Source: Actinoallomurus spadix (lineage in GTDB: Bacteria > Actinomycetota > Actinomycetes > Streptosporangiales > Streptosporangiaceae). Taken from it: a stretch of DNA of 64,000 bases. The notes under the pieces were generated by a model, which worked only from the letters and a program-made list of their open reading frames with translations, searched no databases and was not told the DNA's origin. Both the position numbers and the translations under genes were made by a program. Position 1 is the stretch's first letter, and each line of letters begins with the position of its first letter. This document shows positions 17,023 to 25,981 of the stretch, in pieces. The stretch lies in contig NZ_JAMXMX010000001.1 in the NCBI RefSeq assembly GCF_024055725.1, positions 124,001 to 188,000 on the forward strand. Direction: 5' to 3'.

Positions 17023-17027
17023 CGTCG
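17023..17027. repeat. Left target-site duplication (CGTCG)
   Basis: Five bases immediately outside the left TG terminus, repeated exactly outside the right CA terminus. Confidence 0.85.
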
Positions 17028-17052
17028 TGCCAAGCGACACGAGAGTGTCAGT
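17028..17052 (+). repeat. Left terminal inverted repeat (25 bp)
   Basis: Perfect inverted match to 25952-25976. It contains the palindromic core GACACGAGAGTGTC at 17036-17049. Confidence 0.9.
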
Positions 17053-17118
17053 GGCCTGCGACGTGGAATGTCAGCGACCCCGACACGAGAGTGTCAGTCG
17101 CCGCGACACGAAATTGTC
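17036..17118 (+). repeat. Left-end transposase-site array (four copies, about 23-bp period)
   Basis: Cores start at 17036, 17060 (degenerate GACGTGGAATGTC), 17082 and 17105 (GACACGAAATTGTC), giving steps of 24, 22 and 23 bp. Regular spacing of about two helical turns is like the TnsB sites of Tn7. Each core is a GACAC-N4-GTGTC palindrome. Confidence 0.8.
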
Positions 17119-17358
17119 AGTAGATGGGGGCCCGTTCCGGGGTCGCGCGAGGACCCGTGATCATTCACCTGATTCAGGTCGTCGAGCCGCGAACGTGAGA
17201 CGAACGCGAGGGCTGCCGTCGGCGGTGCTCGTACGGTGATTCCGGTGGCACCCGACGAACGACTCCGGCAGCCGACGACTTCCCCAAGGATCTCCGCCCA
17301 CGGTCGCTACCTGCCGACGCCCGCCCGCACTCACCCGCTGCCCGACCCCGAGCTGTCG
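17119..17358. other. Transposon left-end noncoding region
   Basis: Sequence between the repeat array and the stop codon of the MFS cargo gene. I see no gene or clear structural element. Confidence 0.4.
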
Positions 17359-18600
17359 CTACTCCGGTTGCGGCCGCACCGAGTCGGCCGAGCCTCGCCA
17401 GATCGGCCGGCGTTCCTTGTCCGCGTGTGTCGCCGGGGGCCGGGAACGCAGGATGTCGGCCGCGCGGGCGGCGATGACGCAGAACGCCACGGGCAGGAAG
17501 AAGGTGAGGTTGAGCGGGATGAAGTAGGTCAGTGGTCCGATGATGGTGGGCCCGGCGAGCATGCCGAGATAGCCGAGGCCGGCGACGCGCGAGACATTGA
17601 CTCCGGCCGCGTTCTGGTCGATGTGGCCGGCGGCGCTGAAGAGCTGGGGGACGCAGCCGGACATCCCGCTTCCGAACACAGCCCAGCCAACGAGGGCCAG
17701 CGGGATCCAGGGGGACAGCGCCGCCGCGGTCAGGCCGAGTGCGGCCAGGGACGTGCCGTAGCGGAGGATGGCCACCGGCCCGAAGCGCGCGGCCACCCGG
17801 TCGGCGAGCAGCCGACCGGCAGTCATGGCGGTGGAGAAGGCCCCGTAGGCGAGGGCCGCAGTGGCGGCGGGCGCCTCCAGGACGTCCCGCAGGTGCAGCA
17901 CGCTCCAGTCGTTGGCCACACCTTCGCAGAGCATGAGCATCAACGCGAGAGCGGCCAGCACCCAGATGCGCCGGGGAGTCCGGCGCCGGGGCTTCAACGC
18001 GGCTGCGGGAGCTTCCGCGGGGCGGGCGTGCTCGGCCCGCAGCAGCGCGGGCGCTGCCGACGCGGCGGCGGCGAGGCCGAGGAGTGCCACCGCCCCGAGG
18101 GTCATCGCCGGGCTCCAGCCCCAGCTGAGCGTGCGGGCGCCGGCTAGCGCGGCGAGGACACCACCGATGGAGAAGGTGGCATGGAAGGCGGACATGACGG
18201 GCCGCCGGTAGCCGCGCTCGACTTGGACGGCATGAGCGTTCATGCTGACGTCCAGGCAGCCGTTGCCGACACCGAGCATCAGGAGCGCCGCCCCCAGCAT
18301 CCAGACGTTCCTGGCCAGGCCCGGCAGGACCACGGCCGCGCTGCACAGTGCCGCGCTGACCGGTACGACGCTGCGGGCGCCGAAGCGGTCGGTGAGCGGG
18401 CCGACGATCTGCATGCCCGCGAAAGCGCCCCCGCCGAGCAGCAGCAGGAGCCAGCCGAGCACGGCATGGCTGATCCCCACGCGGTGCTCGACGGCGGGGA
18501 TGTGGACGACCCACATCCCCATGAGGAAGCCGTTCAGGGCGAAGTAGGCGAAGGTCGCCCGTCGGCCGGTCCGCAGCGATCTCTCCATGCGTGCGAACAT
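17359..18600 (-). CDS. MFS transporter (transposon cargo)
   Basis: 413-aa major facilitator with about twelve hydrophobic segments, of the YbjJ-like group (ALNGFLMGMWVVHIPAVE, DRFGARSVV and GVGNGCLDVSMNA are visible). The ATG at 18600 starts a normal N-terminal helix. It is divergent from the DeoR gene across a 62-bp AT-rich promoter gap holding GTTCTA/TAGAAC repeats. The substrate is unknown; a DeoR and HAD-phosphatase neighbourhood suggests a sugar or polyol. It is the outermost cargo gene at the left end. Confidence 0.85.
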   Translation of the reverse strand: MFARMERSLRTGRRATFAYFALNGFLMGMWVVHIPAVEHRVGISHAVLGWLLLLLGGGAFAGMQIVGPLTDRFGARSVVPVSAALCSAAVVLPGLARNVWMLGAALLMLGVGNGCLDVSMNAHAVQVERGYRRPVMSAFHATFSIGGVLAALAGARTLSWGWSPAMTLGAVALLGLAAAASAAPALLRAEHARPAEAPAAALKPRRRTPRRIWVLAALALMLMLCEGVANDWSVLHLRDVLEAPAATAALAYGAFSTAMTAGRLLADRVAARFGPVAILRYGTSLAALGLTAAALSPWIPLALVGWAVFGSGMSGCVPQLFSAAGHIDQNAAGVNVSRVAGLGYLGMLAGPTIIGPLTYFIPLNLTFFLPVAFCVIAARAADILRSRPPATHADKERRPIWRGSADSVRPQPE

Positions 18601-18608
18601 ATCGAACA

Positions 18609-18654
18609 GTTCTAGTGTTTGAAAGATTGACTTTAGAACACGTTTGATGTTCTA
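18609..18654. promoter_or_regulatory. DeoR operator candidates in the MFS/deoR divergent promoter
   Basis: TAGAAC at 18634-18639 pairs with GTTCTA at 18649-18654 (6-bp arms, 9-bp spacer); another GTTCTA lies at 18609-18614 within GAACAGTTC. In a 62-bp gap far richer in AT than its surroundings, these are likely regulator sites for both directions. Confidence 0.55.
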
Positions 18655-18662
18655 TCGCAGGT

Positions 18663-19421
18663 GTGGCGAGTACAGATCGACTGAGGCAGATCACCGAGGC
18701 CGTGCGCGAGGCGGGTCGCATCGGCGTCGCGGAGCTGGCCGGCCTGACCGGCGCGTCGGAGATGACCATCCGCCGCGACCTGGAGATTCTGGCCGACCAG
18801 GGCGTCCTGGAGCGCTATCGCGGAGGAGCGAGAAGCCTGTTGCTGCGCGGTGAAGGGCCCCCCTTCGCGCTGCGGGCGCAGGAGGGGCTGGAGGCCAAGC
18901 GGCGCATCGCCGCCGAGGTGGCCGGGCTGATCGCCGACGGGGAGTCCGTCGTCCTCGACAGCGGCACCACCTGCCTGCAGGTGGCCCATGCACTGGAGTA
19001 CCGCCGCCTGACCGTGATGCCGCTGTCCCTACACGCGGTGAGCGCACTGACCGGGGCACCGCAACTGACGCTGCTGGTGCCCGGCGGCCAGCCGCGGCCG
19101 GGCGAGTTGACGTTGACCGGCCCTCTGACCGCGGCGTCGCTGGCCGCCCTGCGTTTCGACACCGCGCTCATCGGCTGCTGCGGACTGAACGCGACGAACG
19201 GCCTGACCGCTTACGACCTGGACGACGCCGCCGTCAAGCGTGCCGCGATCGCGTCGGCCCGCCGCGTCATCGCCGTTACGGAGGCCGCCAAGCTCTCCCG
19301 CACCGCGCTCGCCTTCGTCGCCCCCGCCTCCGCTCTGCACGCTGTTGTCACCGACGAGGCCGCCCCTCGCGAGGAGACCGACGCACTGGCTGCGGCGGGC
19401 GTGACCGTACGGAAGGTGTGA
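18663..19421 (+). CDS. DeoR/GlpR-family transcriptional regulator (transposon cargo)
   Basis: 252 aa: N-terminal DeoR helix-turn-helix (RIGVAELAGLTGASEMTIRR, residues about 19-38) followed by YRGGARS and the sugar-phosphate-sensing DeoRC domain (VVLDSGTTCLQVA, GCCGLNATNGLT, VAVTEAAKLSRTA-like). DeoR proteins usually repress until a phosphorylated sugar binds. Start is a GTG at 18663. It is divergent from the MFS gene and 4 bp upstream of the HAD gene, so it probably controls both. Confidence 0.88.
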   Translation: MASTDRLRQITEAVREAGRIGVAELAGLTGASEMTIRRDLEILADQGVLERYRGGARSLLLRGEGPPFALRAQEGLEAKRRIAAEVAGLIADGESVVLDSGTTCLQVAHALEYRRLTVMPLSLHAVSALTGAPQLTLLVPGGQPRPGELTLTGPLTAASLAALRFDTALIGCCGLNATNGLTAYDLDDAAVKRAAIASARRVIAVTEAAKLSRTALAFVAPASALHAVVTDEAAPREETDALAAAGVTVRKV

Positions 19422-19425
19422 CCCC

Positions 19426-20046
19426 GTGACCGGCACCGTGCTCTTCGACCTGTTCGGCGTGCTCGCACACCACCAGTCCACCGAAGGGAAGTACCGGCTG
19501 GCCCGGACGGCGGGCGTCTCGGGCCCGGCCTTCTGGGAGGCGTACTGGGCGCTGCGCCCGTCCTATGACCGTGGAGAGGTGACCGGCCCCGGTTACTGGT
19601 CCCAGGTGGCCGGCGCCCTCGGCGCCCGCTTCGACCGCCGCCGGATCGCGGAACTCATTGAGGCCGACATCGCCACGTGCAGCGCCGTCAACGAGACCAT
19701 GGTCGCCCTGGTGGAAGAGCTCGTGGCATCCGGCCGGCGGATCGCGCTGCTGTCCAACATCCCCGAGGAGTTGGCCGTCCACTACGAAACACACCACCGC
19801 TGGCTCCAGCACTTTCAGGTACGTGCCTTCTCCTGCCGCATCGGCCACGCCAAACCCGAGCCGGACGCCTACCGGTGGTGCCAGAACGCGCTGCGCGAGG
19901 ACCCGGCTCGCATCCTCTTCGTCGACGACCGCCAGAACAACATCCAAGCCGCCGAGGCAACCGGCATGCGCGGTCACCTCTTCACCACCCCCACCCGGCT
20001 GAGGGAAAGCCTCGCCCAGTGGGACGCCGCCCGGTCGCCATCGTGA
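19426..20046 (+). CDS. HAD-superfamily hydrolase, subfamily IA-like (transposon cargo)
   Basis: 206 aa with HAD motifs in order: LFDLFGVL (nucleophile Asp8), LLSN, the Lys of GHAKPEP and FVDDR with the metal-binding acids. The acid/base Asp two residues after the nucleophile (DxD) is replaced by Phe10, seen in some YihX-like members but unusual for an efficient phosphatase. Start is GTG, with an AAGG site inside the deoR tail. It is probably co-transcribed with deoR. A sugar-phosphate phosphatase role is inferred from context. Confidence 0.8.
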   Translation: MTGTVLFDLFGVLAHHQSTEGKYRLARTAGVSGPAFWEAYWALRPSYDRGEVTGPGYWSQVAGALGARFDRRRIAELIEADIATCSAVNETMVALVEELVASGRRIALLSNIPEELAVHYETHHRWLQHFQVRAFSCRIGHAKPEPDAYRWCQNALREDPARILFVDDRQNNIQAAEATGMRGHLFTTPTRLRESLAQWDAARSPS

Positions 20047-20277
20047 GCCACTACCTCCACCCGGCTCGCCGTAACCCCAGCGCCGAGGCCCCGATTCCTG
20101 AACGCGGCCGTCTACGTCGACGCACCCGCCGACATCCGCTTGCCGCAAGATCGACGAAGGCCGTGACCCCCGCCACGGGCTGCGCGGCTACCTCAAGTAA
20201 GTACGCATCGCCCATGACCGGCGCATCGTCCCCAGCCGCGGACACGAGAGTGTCAGTGCCCGGTGTGGAGGAGCGCG
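20047..20277. other. Noncoding gap with decayed coding traces
   Basis: Between the HAD gene and the recombinase gene. Short stretches look protein-like (for example KIDEGRDPRHGLRGYLK then stop, near 20150-20200), but no frame is continuous; it may be a gene remnant at the junction of cargo and transposition modules. Confidence 0.3.
20241..20254 (+). repeat. Internal copy of the transposon-end motif
   Basis: GACACGAGAGTGTC, identical to the core of the left terminal repeat and in the same orientation, 3.2 kb inside the element at the boundary between cargo and the recombinase gene. It lacks the terminal TGCCAAGC extension. Confidence 0.8.
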
Positions 20278-21300
20278 CTACTCGTCGACGGGGATCCGGC
20301 GGATGGCGCGCTGTTTGTCGTGCTCGGTGGGCAGGCTGTAGCGGCGGGCGGTTTCGACGCTGTGGCCGAGGAGTTCGGCGACGACGACGATGTCTTCGCC
20401 GCTGCGGACCATGATCGTCCCGGCGGAGTGCCGCAAGGTGTGAGGCGTGAATTCGCCGTCGATGCCGACTTCGAGGTTGGCGTCCTCGGCGATGGCTTTG
20501 AGGATGTCGTAGGCCCCGCGGGTGGAGAGCCGGCCGCCGCGGGCGTTGAGGAACAGCGCCGGGTTGGTGTCGGCGGCGGGCCAGCTAGCGCGTTCTGCGC
20601 GCCAGTCGTCCAGGGCGGTGCGGAGCTTGGGGTGCAGCGGGACCTCGCGATATTTGCCGTTCTTGCCGTAGCGGATGATCAGGTGGCCTTTGCGGGCTGA
20701 GGTGCGGACGTCGCCGAGGTCCAGGGCGACGGTCTCTCCGCCGCGGGTGCCGGCGTACAGCTCGGTGAAGGCCAGGGCCCGGTCGCGGGCGCTGGCGCGT
20801 TCGGCGGCGCGTAGCCAGCGGGTGAGGCCGCGTTCGGACAGGGCGCGGGGGGCGGCCTGGGGCAGTTCCTGGCGTTTGGCGGCGGCAGGCCCGAGCCCGA
20901 GCCGGCGGAAGAAGTCGTCGATCGCGGTCAGGTGCGCGTTGACGGTTGAGGCCTTGCGCTTGGCGACCGTCAGCAGGAAGGCGCGGTAGTCGCGGGCGGC
21001 TCCGTCACGGGCGGCCGGGCCGGTAAGCGGGTCACCGCCGACATCGGCGTCGGGAAGCCAGGCCAGGAATTGGCGGACCCTGGACAGGTAGGCGCGGACG
21101 GTGTCGGGGTCGAGCGGCCCGCCCGCTCGGGTGAGCTCTTGCTCGTAGTCGTCGTAGGCCGCGGCGTAGGCGGCCGGGATCGGGGTCGGCTGTTTGCCGC
21201 GACGGGGAGCCGGTGTCGTTCCCTCGGCGAGAGCTCCCCCAGTATCGGAAGCTGTTCCGGCGGCCTGTGATCCCGCCTGCGCCGAAGTATCGGAAGTCAT
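20278..21300 (-). CDS. Tyrosine recombinase/integrase of the transposon
   Basis: 340 aa. A core-binding domain (about 40-130) precedes a complete catalytic set: R186 (GTRGGE), K213 (YGKNGK), H287-x-x-R290 (HTLRHS), H313 (LLGHS) and Y321 (ARRYSLPTE). XerC/XerD-like and presumably active. Within this transposon its likely job is resolving cointegrates, the role of the serine resolvase TniR in Tn5053, or mobilising cargo. The N-terminal 35 residues are low-complexity; the DNA encoding them carries two of the three AGTATCGGAAG repeats. Divergent from the transposase gene. Confidence 0.9.
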   Translation of the reverse strand: MTSDTSAQAGSQAAGTASDTGGALAEGTTPAPRRGKQPTPIPAAYAAAYDDYEQELTRAGGPLDPDTVRAYLSRVRQFLAWLPDADVGGDPLTGPAARDGAARDYRAFLLTVAKRKASTVNAHLTAIDDFFRRLGLGPAAAKRQELPQAAPRALSERGLTRWLRAAERASARDRALAFTELYAGTRGGETVALDLGDVRTSARKGHLIIRYGKNGKYREVPLHPKLRTALDDWRAERASWPAADTNPALFLNARGGRLSTRGAYDILKAIAEDANLEVGIDGEFTPHTLRHSAGTIMVRSGEDIVVVAELLGHSVETARRYSLPTEHDKQRAIRRIPVDE

Positions 21301-21346
21301 CCCTGGAGCCTACTGCCGATATTCACAAGTATCGGAAGCTCCGATA
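21241..21346. repeat. Candidate recombination (res-like) site with three AGTATCGGAAG repeats
   Basis: AGTATCGGAAG occurs at 21241, 21286 and 21328 (steps of 45 and 42 bp, about four helical turns). Around the last copy are CCGATA-N8-TATCGG (21316-21335) and TATCGGA-AGC-TCCGATA (21330-21346), inverted arms with spacers of the size bound by tyrosine recombinases. It overlaps the recombinase start codon and its divergent promoter, so an operator role is also possible. Confidence 0.6.
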
Positions 21347-21406
21347 GGGTCCGTTCGATCATCGTCTGTGCGGTCGGCGCCCACGCCGTGCCGGGAGGGT
21401 GCCGCG

Positions 21407-23038
21407 GTGGGCAGGCTGACGCGCGAGGAATGGGACGCGGCGCTGTACCGGCTGCGGCGGCTGAGCGATCGAGGCGAGTCCATCACCGCCGAGGTTAGTG
21501 CGACGGCGGCGGCGCTGGGAGTGGCCGAGCGGACGGTGTGGCGCCGGCTCGGGTCGTCTCCGCGTCCGCGTCCGCGGTTCGCACTGTCGCAGACCGACAT
21601 CGCCGCCTTCGTCGACTTCTGCGGGAACGTCTCGGCGGTGCACCGGGCCCGGTCGGCCGCAATCGCCGGGCGGACCACCAGCGCCGGGGTACCGATCGAC
21701 CCCGACCTGCTGGCCGGCTGGGCCGGGGCGGCCCCGGTGACAGCCCGCACCTTGCAGCGGGCGTTCACCGAGCAGCTGACGCCGGCGTTCGTCGCCGGGG
21801 TGACCGGCGGGGAACGGGCCCGCCGCGCCAAGCTGGTCTACCTCGAGCGTGAGGCGACCTGGCGCAACCAGGTGTGGGAAGGCGATCACAAGAACCTGCC
21901 GATCCTGGTCCTACCGCCGCGCGGCAAGGCCGTCACGCCGTGGGTGACGATGTTCATCGACGATGCCACCCGCGTCATCACCGGCTGGGCGATCGCGCTC
22001 ACCCCGCACACCGGCACCGTGCTGACCGCGTTGCGCATGGGGATGGTCGATGATCCGGCCACCGGCCCGGCACACGGGATCTCCGGGGTGCTGCGCCTGG
22101 ACCAGGGACTGGAGTTCGCCGCGGCGGCCGTGACGGCGGCGACTGCCGCGCTGGGCACCGTGCCGCACGTTCTTCCCGGCTACAGCCCGAACCAGAAGGG
22201 CAAGATCGAGAGGGCGTTCTTGACCGTCGATGAGATGCTGCTGTGCACGCTGCCCGGCTACACCGGCGGGCCACGCGAGGTCAACGGCCGGCTGGCGGGG
22301 CCGCTGGATGACCGGGTCAAGGCTCGCGTCGGCTATGGCGATGCCGCTGCCGCCGGGCAAGAGGCCGGGCTGCCGTTGGGTCTGGAGAGCTTCGCGCGGA
22401 TCTTCGGTAACTGGGTGCAGGCCTACAACACCGAGCACGTCCACAGCGAGCTCGGCCGGACCCCGGCCGAGGCCTGGGCCGCCGACGCCAGCCCGCTGGA
22501 GGATGTGCCCGCCGAACACCTACGGCATCTGCTGCTGGCCAGCCGGCCGCGCACGATCGGCCCGCACGGCATTCGGTTCCGCAACCTCAAGTGGCTTGAT
22601 CCCGGTGGGTTGATCCGCGAGCGGCGCGGCACGCAGGTGCAGATCCGGTACATGCCGCACGATGACCGGTTCATCGACGTCTACCTCGACGGGGAGTTCC
22701 TGGCGACCTGCTACCCGACCAACGCGCTCACCGCCGAGCAGGAAGCCGAGTTCTACGCCGCCGCCCGCGCCCAGGAGAAACAGGCCGCAGCGCAGCGCTC
22801 CGCCGCCCGCCGGCGTGGCCGGATGCGCCTGGCGGCTCTGTCGGCCACCGACACCAGCACCGAGTCGGTGCGCAAGATCAGTCCCGCTGAAGCCGAGCGC
22901 CTCAACCGGGCCGGTGGGAGCGGGGGAAGGCCTCGGCCCGAGACCAGCACCAGTCTGCTGGGCATCGTCCCGATCGGCCCTATCGAACCGGTCGATCTGG
23001 CCGATCTGGACGTCGACCGGGAACACCGGCCGTGGTGA
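21407..23038 (+). CDS. DDE transposase, TniA/TnsB-like (Mu integrase family)
   Basis: 543 aa from GTG at 21407, chosen because GGGAGGG lies 8-9 bp upstream; a longer in-frame start at 21194 would overlap the recombinase gene. The N-terminus holds helix-turn-helix segments (VSATAAALGVAERTVWRRLG). The rve-type catalytic triad is D160 (WEGDHK), D232 (LRLDQG) and E268 (GKIERAF), a D-35-E spacing as in active enzymes. A C-terminal beta-barrel-like Mu domain follows (IRFRNLKWLDPGGL, VQIRYMPHDDRFIDVY). It cuts and joins the element ends and should bind the 23-bp-spaced motif. Its stop overlaps the ATPase start. Confidence 0.93.
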   Translation: MGRLTREEWDAALYRLRRLSDRGESITAEVSATAAALGVAERTVWRRLGSSPRPRPRFALSQTDIAAFVDFCGNVSAVHRARSAAIAGRTTSAGVPIDPDLLAGWAGAAPVTARTLQRAFTEQLTPAFVAGVTGGERARRAKLVYLEREATWRNQVWEGDHKNLPILVLPPRGKAVTPWVTMFIDDATRVITGWAIALTPHTGTVLTALRMGMVDDPATGPAHGISGVLRLDQGLEFAAAAVTAATAALGTVPHVLPGYSPNQKGKIERAFLTVDEMLLCTLPGYTGGPREVNGRLAGPLDDRVKARVGYGDAAAAGQEAGLPLGLESFARIFGNWVQAYNTEHVHSELGRTPAEAWAADASPLEDVPAEHLRHLLLASRPRTIGPHGIRFRNLKWLDPGGLIRERRGTQVQIRYMPHDDRFIDVYLDGEFLATCYPTNALTAEQEAEFYAAARAQEKQAAAQRSAARRRGRMRLAALSATDTSTESVRKISPAEAERLNRAGGSGGRPRPETSTSLLGIVPIGPIEPVDLADLDVDREHRPW

Positions 23039-23808
23039 GGGCGCCGCAGGCCGGGCCGCCCGGGGCACGGATCATCTCCACCCCGCAGCTGCAGTTGGCC
23101 CGGCACGTGGTCACCGATGTCACCTCGCACGAGGCGGTTGGGGTAATCCACGGCCATGCCGGGCTGGGCAAGACCTTCGCCGTGCGGACGTGTGCGCAGG
23201 CGCTGGCCGCCGGCACCGGCCGGTTGGAAGCACCCCAGGTGTGCACGGTGTCGTTCAGCCCGCAGCCCACGCTGCGACAAGTCGTCGACGCGCTGCTGCT
23301 GACGCTGACCGGCAGTCACGGCTCGTCCAAGAGCCGCTTCCATCTCACCCGCGAGCTGATCGCCGAGCTGGCCCGCATCCCGCGGTTGATCGTGGTCGAT
23401 GAGGCCCAGCGGCTGACCGGGCACGGGATCGAGCTGCTGCGGCACTTGCACGACGACCCCGACACCCGGCTCGGGCTGCTGTACGTCGGCGGTCACGGCT
23501 GCTGGGAGGTGCTCGCCCGCGAGCCGATGCTCGCCTCGAGGATCTGGCGGCGCCTGGCCATCACCCCGCTGGACCGCGACATCGTCCCTGAGGCGATCCG
23601 CGGCTACCACCCGATGTACGAAGACGCCGACGACGAGCTGCTGCACTACATCGACGACCGGTTCGCCCACGGCATCTGGCGCAACTGGGCGTCGTTCTCC
23701 TCAACCGCGCACCTGCTCGCCCAGCGCGCCGGCCGCACGGCCATCGACGAGGAGATCATCACCAACGCGTTCGCGCTGCATGGCGGGGGACCCAACCGTG
23801 CCCGCTGA
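23032..23808 (+). CDS. AAA ATPase, TniB/TnsC-like transposition regulator
   Basis: 258 aa. Walker A GHAGLGKT (41-48), Walker B LIVVDEAQ (119-126), a sensor-like YVGGHG, and an all-helical C-terminal part. This is the size and layout of TniB/TnsC, which activates the transposase at the chosen target. The start is GTG at 23032 or GTG at 23035 (GTGA overlap with the transposase stop); either gives tight coupling. The usual partner TniQ is not recognisable downstream. Confidence 0.87.
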   Translation: MVRAPQAGPPGARIISTPQLQLARHVVTDVTSHEAVGVIHGHAGLGKTFAVRTCAQALAAGTGRLEAPQVCTVSFSPQPTLRQVVDALLLTLTGSHGSSKSRFHLTRELIAELARIPRLIVVDEAQRLTGHGIELLRHLHDDPDTRLGLLYVGGHGCWEVLAREPMLASRIWRRLAITPLDRDIVPEAIRGYHPMYEDADDELLHYIDDRFAHGIWRNWASFSSTAHLLAQRAGRTAIDEEIITNAFALHGGGPNRAR

Positions 23809-25144
23809 GGGCCCCGGCCCGGCCGAGCCGGCCCAAGTCACCGTGATCCGCGACACCGACGACCTGCCCACCACCGGACGGCGGCTGCGGGAACTCACCG
23901 ACCCCGACGGCGGGATCGTGGTGCTGCGCCCGGTCCCCTACAGCGGCTCGATCAACGACTTCCTGTTTTGCGTTCTGGAAGGGCTCGGCAAGCACCTGCC
24001 CGCCCGGCTGTCGTCCCCGCAACGCCCCTGGGACCAGGCCAAAGCATGGGTCACCGGCTACCGTCTGGCGCACCTGGTGGTCGACCGCGCCCACACCATG
24101 CCAGCAGAATTCGCGCCCTACCTGCGTGCACTCCTCGGCCCCCACCGCCCGCACCGAACCCGGCTGTGGCTGATCGACGCCTCCCGCACCACCGCCAGCT
24201 CGGTCGTCACCGCGTTCGGCCGCGACCCCGACAGCCAGGTCAGGACCGTCGACCCGCGCGAACTCGACCGGATACGGCCCCGCCCGCCGGCCGCGACCAG
24301 GGCCAAGGCGATCGGCGAGCCGATCCCTGATGACCTGCCCGCCGACAACTTCTTGACCTTTCGAGCCGCCTGCATCCGCGCCCTTGACCGCAACACCGCC
24401 GCCCGCGTCGACCAGCTGTGGCTCAAGACCTTCCAGGCCGCCCGCACCTGGCTGCGCGCCCATCGGAAGGTCGGGGAGGCCGGCCAGGCACCCGACCGGC
24501 TCGCGCTGCCGCTCAGCATCCACCTGGCCGCCCGCCTCTACCGGTGCGCCTCCGACGGCGAAGCCCTGGTCCGGCTCCGCGCCACTCAAGCGGCCTTCCT
24601 ACGCGACGGGCTCCTCCTCCACCACCAGACATGGCCCGGCGCCCCCGGCCTGGGCCACCGCCTCACCTCCACCGCGGTCGCGGCCATCAACCGGGCCACC
24701 ATCGCCACCGGCCCGGCCGCCGCCGCGACCCTGTTCCTGTTGTTCCCCTTCGACCGCCGCGGCGACGAACGGTACTGGCACCCCAGCACGCTCACCATGG
24801 ACGACGTCACCAGCACCGCAACCGGCATCAAGATCAACGGCGAGTACCTTCCCATCCCCGCCCACGCCCGGCCCGCAATCGCCGCGCACCTCGCCTTCCG
24901 CCAGATGCAGGGCCCCCGCCACCCCGGCGACCCGTTCTTCGACCTCACCCCACCGCACGACGACGTCCGCACCCAGGCCGACCGCGCCCTGACCGCCACC
25001 ACCGCCGCCGGTGACCCTTCTGCCGACCGCGTCGAGCCGCCCGCCGGGCACGGCACCCTCTGGATGCGGCAGCGCCGCCTCATCCTGCGCAACCTGGTCG
25101 GCAACGCCCACACCCTCGACCTGAGCACCCCCGCATGGACATGA
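23798..25144 (+). CDS. Unrecognised 448-aa transposition-module protein (degenerate ATPase-like plus recombinase-like)
   Basis: Takes the operon position of TniQ/TnsD but shows no Cys/His zinc cluster. GTG at 23798 has GGGGGA 7 bp upstream and is preferred over ATG 23780, which has no such site. The N-terminal ~140 residues echo the preceding ATPase without its Walker A (compare IVVLRPVPYSGSINDFLF and LAHLVVDRAHTMPAEF with SFSPQPTLRQVVDALLL and LIVVDEAQRLTG). The C-terminal ~150 residues resemble the tyrosine-recombinase core (WHPSTLTMDDVTSTATGIKI, YLPIPAHARPAIAAHLAFR) but lack an R...HxxR...Y set. A target-selection or regulatory role is inferred from position only. Confidence 0.75.
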   Translation: MPAEGPGPAEPAQVTVIRDTDDLPTTGRRLRELTDPDGGIVVLRPVPYSGSINDFLFCVLEGLGKHLPARLSSPQRPWDQAKAWVTGYRLAHLVVDRAHTMPAEFAPYLRALLGPHRPHRTRLWLIDASRTTASSVVTAFGRDPDSQVRTVDPRELDRIRPRPPAATRAKAIGEPIPDDLPADNFLTFRAACIRALDRNTAARVDQLWLKTFQAARTWLRAHRKVGEAGQAPDRLALPLSIHLAARLYRCASDGEALVRLRATQAAFLRDGLLLHHQTWPGAPGLGHRLTSTAVAAINRATIATGPAAAATLFLLFPFDRRGDERYWHPSTLTMDDVTSTATGIKINGEYLPIPAHARPAIAAHLAFRQMQGPRHPGDPFFDLTPPHDDVRTQADRALTATTAAGDPSADRVEPPAGHGTLWMRQRRLILRNLVGNAHTLDLSTPAWT

Positions 25145-25920
25145 GGCAACCCGACCCGCTGGGAACCTGGCTCCTGCGCCGGGCCCGCGACCACGGCATG
25201 ACCAGCGAGCAACTCGCCGACCTGCTCGGGCTACCCGTCCACCGGATCCGCCGCCTCACCGACGGCGCCGACCTCGACGACCTACCCGTACGAGCCGTCC
25301 GCGCCGTAGCCAGGCGACTCGACCTGCCCTGGCCCGGATGGCTGGACCACAGCCCCACCCGCCCTGATGACCACACCGTCCAGGCCAGCCCCGCAACCAA
25401 CTCGACCGACTCGCTCGACGACGCCGATCGTGTGCACGCCGTCCTGATCCTGGCCCTCGCCCACCCCATGGGAGTGGACCAGATCGCGCACGTGCTGGAC
25501 TGGCCGCTCGAACGCGCTCAGAACGCCGCCGACCACCTCGCCGCACTACTCCACGAACACCCGGTCCTTCGCCTCACCGCCGGCGAAGGCACCATCCTGC
25601 GACTCGCCGTGCAGCCCAACCTCCTCGGCCCAGACGTCCGCACCCGGATCCAGCACGTCCTCAACCAGCAACAAGGCCCCGCGCCCGGCATGGCCTTCAT
25701 CGCCTACCGCGCCGGCCACCGAGACCACCAGCGCATCAAAGACATCCTGACCAGCGACCCCGAACTCCTCGACGCCGCCGTCGACGCCGGATACATCACC
25801 TGCCGCATCGACCCCCACGGCCAGCCAACACAAATCAAGCTGACACCCGAGGTCGCCTTCAGCCTGAACATCCCGGTCAACCTCCACGACACCCTGCTAC
25901 TGGAGCCGAAGACCGAGTGA
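25135..25920 (+). CDS. Helix-turn-helix / winged-helix protein of the transposition operon
   Basis: 261 aa. The N-terminal segment looks like an XRE-type helix-turn-helix (HGMTSEQLADLLGLPVHRIR); a second DNA-binding-like segment of winged-helix character follows (ILALAHPMGVDQIAHVLDW, LERAQNAADHLAALL). The C-terminal part is unassigned. Starts at ATG 25135 or ATG 25141 (ATGA overlap with the previous stop). It ends 11 bp before the right-end repeat array. It could bind DNA in target choice, in ordering the ends, or in repression of the operon. Confidence 0.75.
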   Translation: MDMRQPDPLGTWLLRRARDHGMTSEQLADLLGLPVHRIRRLTDGADLDDLPVRAVRAVARRLDLPWPGWLDHSPTRPDDHTVQASPATNSTDSLDDADRVHAVLILALAHPMGVDQIAHVLDWPLERAQNAADHLAALLHEHPVLRLTAGEGTILRLAVQPNLLGPDVRTRIQHVLNQQQGPAPGMAFIAYRAGHRDHQRIKDILTSDPELLDAAVDAGYITCRIDPHGQPTQIKLTPEVAFSLNIPVNLHDTLLLEPKTE

Positions 25921-25931
25921 CCCAGGTCACT

Positions 25932-25968
25932 GACACTCTCGTGTCGCTTCTACTGACACTCTCGTGTC
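25932..25968 (-). repeat. Right-end transposase-site array (two copies, 23-bp period)
   Basis: Cores GACACTCTCGTGTC at 25932-25945 and 25955-25968, inverted relative to the left-end copies. Confidence 0.85.
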
Positions 25969-25976
25969 GCTTGGCA
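25952..25976 (-). repeat. Right terminal inverted repeat (25 bp)
   Basis: Exact reverse complement of 17028-17052, ending in CA. Confidence 0.9.
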
Positions 25977-25981
25977 CGTCG
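25977..25981. repeat. Right target-site duplication (CGTCG)
   Basis: Exact copy of 17023-17027. Confidence 0.85.

What the first reader, a model, noticed from the sequence alone, without database searches (positions are those of the whole stretch)
17028..25976. Complete transposon defined to the base, possibly an undescribed Tn7/Tn5053-like family
TG...CA ends, perfect 25-bp inverted repeats and an exact CGTCG 5-bp duplication are seen directly. The core DDE transposase plus TniB/TnsC-like ATPase follows known families. However, there is no recognisable TniQ and no serine resolvase; instead there is a 448-aa novel protein, an HTH protein and a tyrosine recombinase. That combination is not one I can name.
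Basis: partly seen in the sequence, partly recalled or inferred. Interest (0 to 1): 0.88.

Follow-up and report, generated by a model that had tools for sequence, protein, structure and literature searches.

The report
TniQ-free transposon family of actinobacteria
A complete 8.9-kb jumping element belongs to a widespread actinobacterial family that has a Tn7-style cutting-and-pasting core but appears to choose its landing site with a different kind of protein, a dead copy of its own motor ATPase joined to a remnant of a tyrosine recombinase.

Summary
Of 21 family elements whose right end I could read, 8 have an exact 5-bp duplication plus a matching left repeat. The core (TnsB/TniA-like transposase, TniB/MuB-like ATPase, 'P3', HTH 'P4') is a real family: 58 of 60 fetched relatives with enough downstream sequence carry P3. 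TniQ was not found. P3 has recognisable parts: a TnsC/MuB-like AAA+ fold without P-loop, then a part resembling a tyrosine recombinase cut short before its catalytic Tyr. The separate intact tyrosine recombinase lies at a Tn4430-like site with identical 45/42-bp spacing in four elements, so it is probably the resolvase. Three Nocardiopsis elements lie 49-56 bp from one 18-bp motif, once inside a CRISPR array where the motif is a spacer; 4 of 21 lie just before a TrwC-type relaxase gene. Best reading: a replicative transposon whose P3/P4 replace TniQ as target selector. The window copy's own target is unknown.

The parts
17023..17027 (.). left target-site duplication CGTCG
17028..17121 (+). left end: 25-bp TIR plus two further end-motif repeats
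17359..18600 (-). cargo: MFS transporter
   Evidence: MFS_1 1.3e-27
18663..19421 (+). cargo: DeoR-family regulator
   Evidence: DeoRC 3.1e-39
19426..20046 (+). cargo: HAD-family hydrolase
   Evidence: Hydrolase 5.7e-14
20241..20257 (+). internal remnant of a left-end repeat between cargo and core
20278..21300 (-). tyrosine recombinase with the catalytic residues kept, proposed cointegrate resolvase
   Evidence: Phage_integrase 6e-28; R186, H287, R290, H313, Y321 invariant in 9 rows
21243..21337 (+). proposed resolution site: TATCGGAA at 21243, 21288, 21330 plus an inverted copy (1 mismatch) 8 bp before the third; the first two repeats overlap the recombinase N-terminus as called
21407..23038 (+). 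DDE transposase of TnsB/TniA type; D160, D232, E268 proposed catalytic
23032..23808 (+). AAA+ ATPase of TniB/TnsC/MuB type with Walker A
23780..25144 (+). P3: P-loop-less TnsC/MuB-like domain (res 16-160), helical core-binding-like region (194-275), partial tyrosine-recombinase catalytic domain (296-415)
25135..25920 (+). P4: XRE-like HTH plus two winged helices (the first ScpB-like)
25929..25976 (-). right end: two end-motif repeats, the outer one is the 25-bp TIR
25977..25981 (.). right target-site duplication CGTCG

Best explanation
A self-contained replicative transposon of the TnsB/TniA lineage. The DDE transposase binds the repeated end motifs and joins both ends to target DNA with a 5-bp stagger (shown by anatomy and eight duplications; binding inferred). 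No TnsA-like partner was found among the element's proteins, so cointegrates are expected (inferred). The tyrosine recombinase resolves them at the three-repeat-plus-inverted-repeat site beside its gene (architecture shown, activity inferred). The ATPase is the TnsC/MuB-like connector (sequence match and motifs shown). P3 and P4 take the place of TniQ: P3's dead AAA+ half is proposed to dock on or into the ATPase ring or filament while its remnant of a tyrosine recombinase, with P4's HTHs, reads the target sequence and so sets the insertion at a fixed distance (inferred; the shared sequence and near-fixed distance are shown for three Nocardiopsis elements only).
For: Ends and duplications; P3 in 58 of 60 fetched relatives with at least 4 kb downstream of the transposase, same gene order in annotated plasmids; TnsB match 1.8e-36, MuB 6e-12, TnsC 5e-5; P3 model pLDDT 83, AAA+ half to TnsC Z 11.9 rmsd 3.0 over 131 residues, C-terminal part to XerA Z 7.7 rmsd 3.3 over 108; P3 C-terminal profile to 29 tyrosine recombinases over 218 columns E 8e-4, to three unrelated family profiles E 0.17, 0.42, 0.79; resolution site in exactly the four distinct elements with this recombinase, none at five control spacings; serine resolvase instead in L064, L144, L146; 18-21 identical bases 49-56 bp from three right ends, against at most 10 in the other 207 pairs and 9 in reversed controls.
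Against: No transposition was observed. XerA Z 7.7 is below the tool's level of 8, the hhalign probability is only 24%, and against the nine-recombinase alignment it was 1.9% or 0.25% with full-length P3. P3 C-terminus has no Pfam or PHROG recombinase hit. The shared motif concerns 3 of 21 elements; the window copy and L045, L048, L063 lie at chromosomal sites without it, so a general targeting rule is not shown. Attribution of target reading to P3 rather than P4 is a guess. No empty site for the window copy was found. Six elements with inverted left ends (20-25 of 26) lack a matching duplication.
Confidence: 0.66

Rival explanations
1. Tn552/Mu-like element with untargeted insertion: transposase and ATPase suffice, P3 and P4 are regulators or immunity factors.
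For: Plasmid loci with a related transposase, an ATPase and a recombinase and no third core gene annotated exist; 18 of 21 right flanks, the window's among them, share no long motif.
Against: P3 kept in 58 of 60 relatives; three insertions 49-56 bp from one 18-bp motif; TrwC relaxase gene just beyond 4 of 21 right ends and nowhere else in those loci.
Confidence: 0.2
2. TniQ-dependent element in which P4 is a TniQ too diverged for Pfam.
For: P4 is a multi-HTH protein at the end of the core operon; 1 of 18 P4 proteins touches TniQ at E 0.14.
Against: E 0.14 is chance level; P4's best structural rows are ScpB and other winged helices, a list that cannot exclude TniQ; no TniQ at E 0.01 in 14 genomes of the family's carriers.
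Confidence: 0.12
3. The tyrosine recombinase is the integrating or excising enzyme and the element moves as a circle.
For: It keeps the catalytic residues.
Against: 5-bp duplications, DDE core and a serine resolvase in its place in three relatives; its proposed site is internal, not at the ends.
Confidence: 0.04

Closest known systems
Tn5053/Tn402 (TniABQ plus resolvase; R751 copy)
   Same: TniA-like transposase, TniB-like ATPase, a recombinase; plasmid targets for Tn5053 (PMC11406308, passages); 5-bp duplication and repeated ends by recall
   Different: no TniQ found; P3 and P4 instead; tyrosine recombinase in this copy; transposase apart from R751 TniA in the tree
Tn552 (label by recall; S. 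aureus pTW20_1 copy)
   Same: transposase plus ATPase plus resolvase without TniQ
   Different: no P3 or P4 next to it; separate transposase clade
TnsF of Tn6022 and Tsy (PMC10293859, passages read)
   Same: an inactivated tyrosine recombinase used as target selector next to transposase and TnsC (Tn6022)
   Different: Tn6022 TnsF has zinc fingers and works with TniQ; P3 has a TnsC-like domain and no TniQ partner was found
Tn4430 TnpI/irs (PMC7157771, passages read)
   Same: tyrosine resolvase with a site of inverted core plus two direct repeats beside its gene
   Different: belongs to Tn3-family transposons with a different transposase

Membership tests
Tn7/Tn5053 superfamily | TnsB/TniA-type DDE transposase | tested here: met
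Tn7/Tn5053 superfamily | TnsC/TniB AAA+ ATPase | tested here: met
   Pfam TniB 23.8 bits, cut-off 22.4
Tn7/Tn5053 superfamily | TniQ/TnsD protein | tested here: not met
   0 of 16 and 0 of 26 P3, 1 of 18 P4 at E 0.14, 0 of 14 genomes at E 0.01 (its control genomes gave no hit over the cut-off)
Tn7/Tn5053 superfamily | several end repeats at each end and a 5-bp duplication | tested here: met
   transposase binding not tested
Tn7 proper | TnsA endonuclease | tested here: not met
   no TnsA family among the eight element proteins
Tn5053/Tn402 | serine resolvase TniR | tested here: not met
   tyrosine recombinase here; serine resolvase in three relatives
TnsF | inactive tyrosine recombinase domain | tested here: inconclusive
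   Z 7.7 to XerA, E 8e-4; catalytic end not aligned
TnsF | operation through TniQ | not testable with these tools
   no TniQ gene found; interaction needs experiment
TnpI/irs type resolution site | inverted core plus two direct repeats next to a tyrosine recombinase gene | tested here: met

The most novel reading that the evidence does not exclude
A widespread actinobacterial transposon family has replaced TniQ by a fusion of a dead TnsC-like AAA+ domain with a dead tyrosine recombinase. The pseudo-ATPase plugs directly into the TnsC-type assembly and the recombinase remnant reads DNA, sending elements to plasmid mobilisation regions (one 18-bp motif about 50 bp from the insertion; starts of MobF relaxase genes) and even into a CRISPR array that had stored the motif as a spacer.
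Probability: 0.4. Interest if true: 0.85.

Novelty: new variant of a known kind. Interest (0 to 1): 0.74.

Why it matters
[quoted passage not shown] A TniQ-free family with a pseudo-TnsC selector would show another way to couple DNA recognition to a TnsC-type regulator, would make the question 'what does TnsC need from a target selector' directly testable, and could offer integration tools for actinobacteria. A second use of a dead tyrosine recombinase for targeting, beside TnsF, would point to a recurring evolutionary route.

Tried and rejected
Searches with P3 alone: 1 of 8 genus genomes (itself), 3 of 396 phylum genomes including itself, no confirmed locus in genome contigs; the transposase and profiles were needed to reach the family. 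P3 against PDB sequences: none with the single protein; with the profile the best rows were Ssr1698 proteins at E 0.011, judged chance. P3 against PHROGs: nothing better than E 0.12. Foldseek of P3 against viral models: mostly clamp-loader and other ATPase-like rows, no row named integrase among the 50 shown, several unnamed. hhalign of P3 against nine recombinases was not significant; the 29-row set was better. A loose catalytic-motif expression matched 15 of 29 recombinases and 8 of 92 P3 rows and decides nothing. Empty site of the window copy: flanking genes not adjacent in three related genomes. A small ORF right of L040 looked MobC-like by eye but had no Pfam hit. TniQ was not among the 50 P4 structure rows, which excludes nothing.

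Full report
OBSERVATION. The element runs from 17028 to 25976 (8,949 bp). Both ends carry the same 25 bp, TG...CA, and are flanked by CGTCG. The end motif GACACGAGAGTGTCAGT is repeated inside each end, as expected of transposase binding sites, and occurs once more at 20241 in left-end orientation, between the cargo (MFS, DeoR, HAD) and the core genes. A search of the host genome (8.02 Mb, 71 contigs) with the left end found only this element.

FAMILY. A search with the transposase found matches in 55 of 345 genomes of the order, some of them short or weak. A profile search of named genomes found 156 relatives among 238 pattern-matched stretches, of which the best 80 were fetched; a few of the 80 are copies in one genome. 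With family profiles, 77 of 80 loci had the ATPase, 64 P3 and 26 P4; of the 60 with at least 4 kb downstream of the transposase, 58 had P3 and 25 P4 (the P4 profile was built mainly from near relatives). P3 by profile is in 8 of 396 genomes drawn across the phylum, the host included. Layouts vary: transposase-ATPase-P3-P4 around the window's clade, transposase-ATPase-ATPase-P3-P4-P3 in a Streptomyces group (10 of 80), and one with an extra upstream ORF resembling transposase and ATPase (16 of 80 in its commonest form). In a tree of 26 family transposases and six references (R751 TniA, an S. aureus copy that I label Tn552 p480 by recall, a TnsB and three others), family and references are separated with support 100/99 and a branch of 1.85; R751 TniA and the TnsB have long branches that meet, so the order among references is unsure, and rows were chosen by similarity to the query.

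ENDS. I read right ends by eye in 21 distinct elements and then searched left ends. Eight have an inverted left end and an exact 5-bp duplication: window CGTCG, L038 GCAGC, L060 CCTGT, L061 CGAGT, L062 GTTGA, L146 CTTCC, L067 CGGCG, L047 ATGCA (17 of 26 end matches in the last, 20-25 in the others). Six more have an inverted left end of 20-25 of 26 without a matching duplication (L042, L044, L048, L056, L058, L147). In the other seven (L036, L045, L057, L063, L064, L145, L149) no convincing left end was found, in some because the contig stops. By eye, right ends share CACTGACA-type repeats, often three about 25 bp apart.

PROTEINS. The transposase keeps D160, D232 and E268, taken as the DDE triad; its profile matches TnsB (7svw) at 1.8e-36. 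The ATPase profile matches MuB at 6e-12 and TnsC at 5e-5; Walker A is present in 15 of 15. P3: AlphaFold model pLDDT 83.3, pTM 0.85. Residues 16-160 match TnsC (7plh Z 11.9, rmsd 3.0, 131 aligned) and MuB (Z 10.1); residues 296-415 match XerA (5hxy Z 7.7, rmsd 3.3, 108 aligned), the one recombinase among the 50 rows shown, which AAA+ proteins fill. GxxxxGK[ST] is absent in 25 of 26 P3 rows; the one hit is at residue 5 of L065, outside the P-loop position. Profile comparison of P3 with the ATPase gave E 2.2e-5, probability 76%, over the Walker B region; with the transposase nothing. The C-terminal part (92 rows) against 29 recombinases gave E 8e-4, probability 24%, over 218 columns, from the core-binding helices to the HxxR region; against the nine-row set E 0.026. 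Controls: P3 C-terminus against ATPase, transposase and P4, E 0.42, 0.79, 0.17; P3 N-terminus against both recombinase sets, transposase and P4, E 0.14 to 0.58, and against the ATPase, as expected, 1.7e-4; the recombinase set against ATPase, transposase and P4, E 0.49, 0.54, 0.023. No HxxR or Tyr of P3 is aligned and, by eye, the first catalytic Arg is not kept across the family although the window P3 has an Arg near that place, so the domain looks truncated and inactive. P4: XRE-like HTH plus two winged helices, model pLDDT 75, pTM 0.36; best row ScpB Z 11.6 over 80 residues. TniQ: 0 of 16 and 0 of 26 P3, 1 of 18 P4 at E 0.14, 0 of 14 carrier genomes.

RESOLVASE. The tyrosine recombinase keeps R, HxxR, H and Y. 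At its start lie three copies of TATCGGAA at 21243, 21288 and 21330, spacings 45 and 42, with an inverted copy (1 mismatch) 8 bp before the third; the first two overlap the N-terminal codons as called. In 178 held sequences (2.29 Mb) 14 triples have these spacings; seven have the inverted copy, and these are four distinct elements: the window (also L006), L038, L039 = L056 and L043 = L060, in the last three as TATCAGAA; of the other seven, six are the window site read in shifted register and one is a chance triple in L049. Five control spacings gave none. These four elements are the ones whose recombinase is about half or more identical to the window's. PMC7157771 (passages) describes the same four-subsite plan for Tn4430 irs. 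L064, L144 and L146 have a serine resolvase instead.

TARGET. Among 210 pairs of right flanks compared at similar offsets, three stand out with 18, 18 and 21 identical bases: L056, L057 and L060, where GGTGAGCCTTGGTATCTC begins 50, 56 and 49 bp beyond the right end; the next best pair has 10, reversed controls at most 9; no other flank has more than 12 of the 18 bases. L060 is inside a CRISPR array (3 repeats left, 9 right in the held stretch) and the motif is the adjacent spacer. Sixteen bases of the motif occur in 5 of 40 genomes of that genus, three with the element and two (G486, G515) that had no transposase match. In L056 the motif lies just before a TrwC-type relaxase gene. TrwC relaxase genes begin within about 0.2 kb beyond the right end in L056, L058, L145 and L147 (4 of 21), in the same direction; a profile made from these four found no further one in the 21 loci. 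L059 (= L042) has NikA-like and MobA/VirD2-like genes there. P3 identity among L056, L057 and L060 is 29-54%. The window copy lies between a GH92 and a GH2-type glycosidase gene. Targeting is thus a pattern of some lineages, not a rule shown for all.

READING. The core is that of Tn7/Tn5053-type elements, but a defining component, TniQ, was tested and not found, so I do not file it as a Tn5053 member. It works like one, with P3/P4 in TniQ's place. Which of the two reads DNA, and how P3 meets the ATPase, is inference.

LITERATURE. Seen as passages: PMC10293859, PMC11406308, PMC7157771, PMC12231136. The last reports Streptomycetaceae type I-E CRISPR loci with tnsB and tnsC and no flanking ends; I did not link those to this family. 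Searches for a prior description; only listings were seen, and none named this family. Facts on Tn552, Tn5053 and Tn4430 beyond those passages are recalled.

Noticed in passing
L060 3793-15073: A family element is inserted inside a Nocardiopsis CRISPR array, with repeats on both sides and its target motif as the neighbouring spacer.
   Followed up: yes
L081; L112 and L114: Some Streptomyces relatives with two ATPase genes lie within about 30 kb of a chromosome or contig end, in Streptomyces sp. Z26 near both ends of one contig.
   Followed up: no
window 20241-20257: Internal left-end remnant between cargo and core; further left-end-like copies inside L038, L060 and L061 suggest cargo was captured by switching to an outer end.
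   Followed up: partly
L159 and L160 near the motif: Regions around the target motif carry CGTCACTGACG/GTCAGTGACG-type sequences resembling the transposon's own CACTGAC end repeats.
   Followed up: no
L038 12041-14158: A single 705-aa frame starts as P3 and is long enough to include a fused P4 (not tested).
   Followed up: no
L117 1-2730 and L185: A complete-looking type I-E cas operon lies upstream of a Streptomyces relative, separated by other genes.
   Followed up: partly
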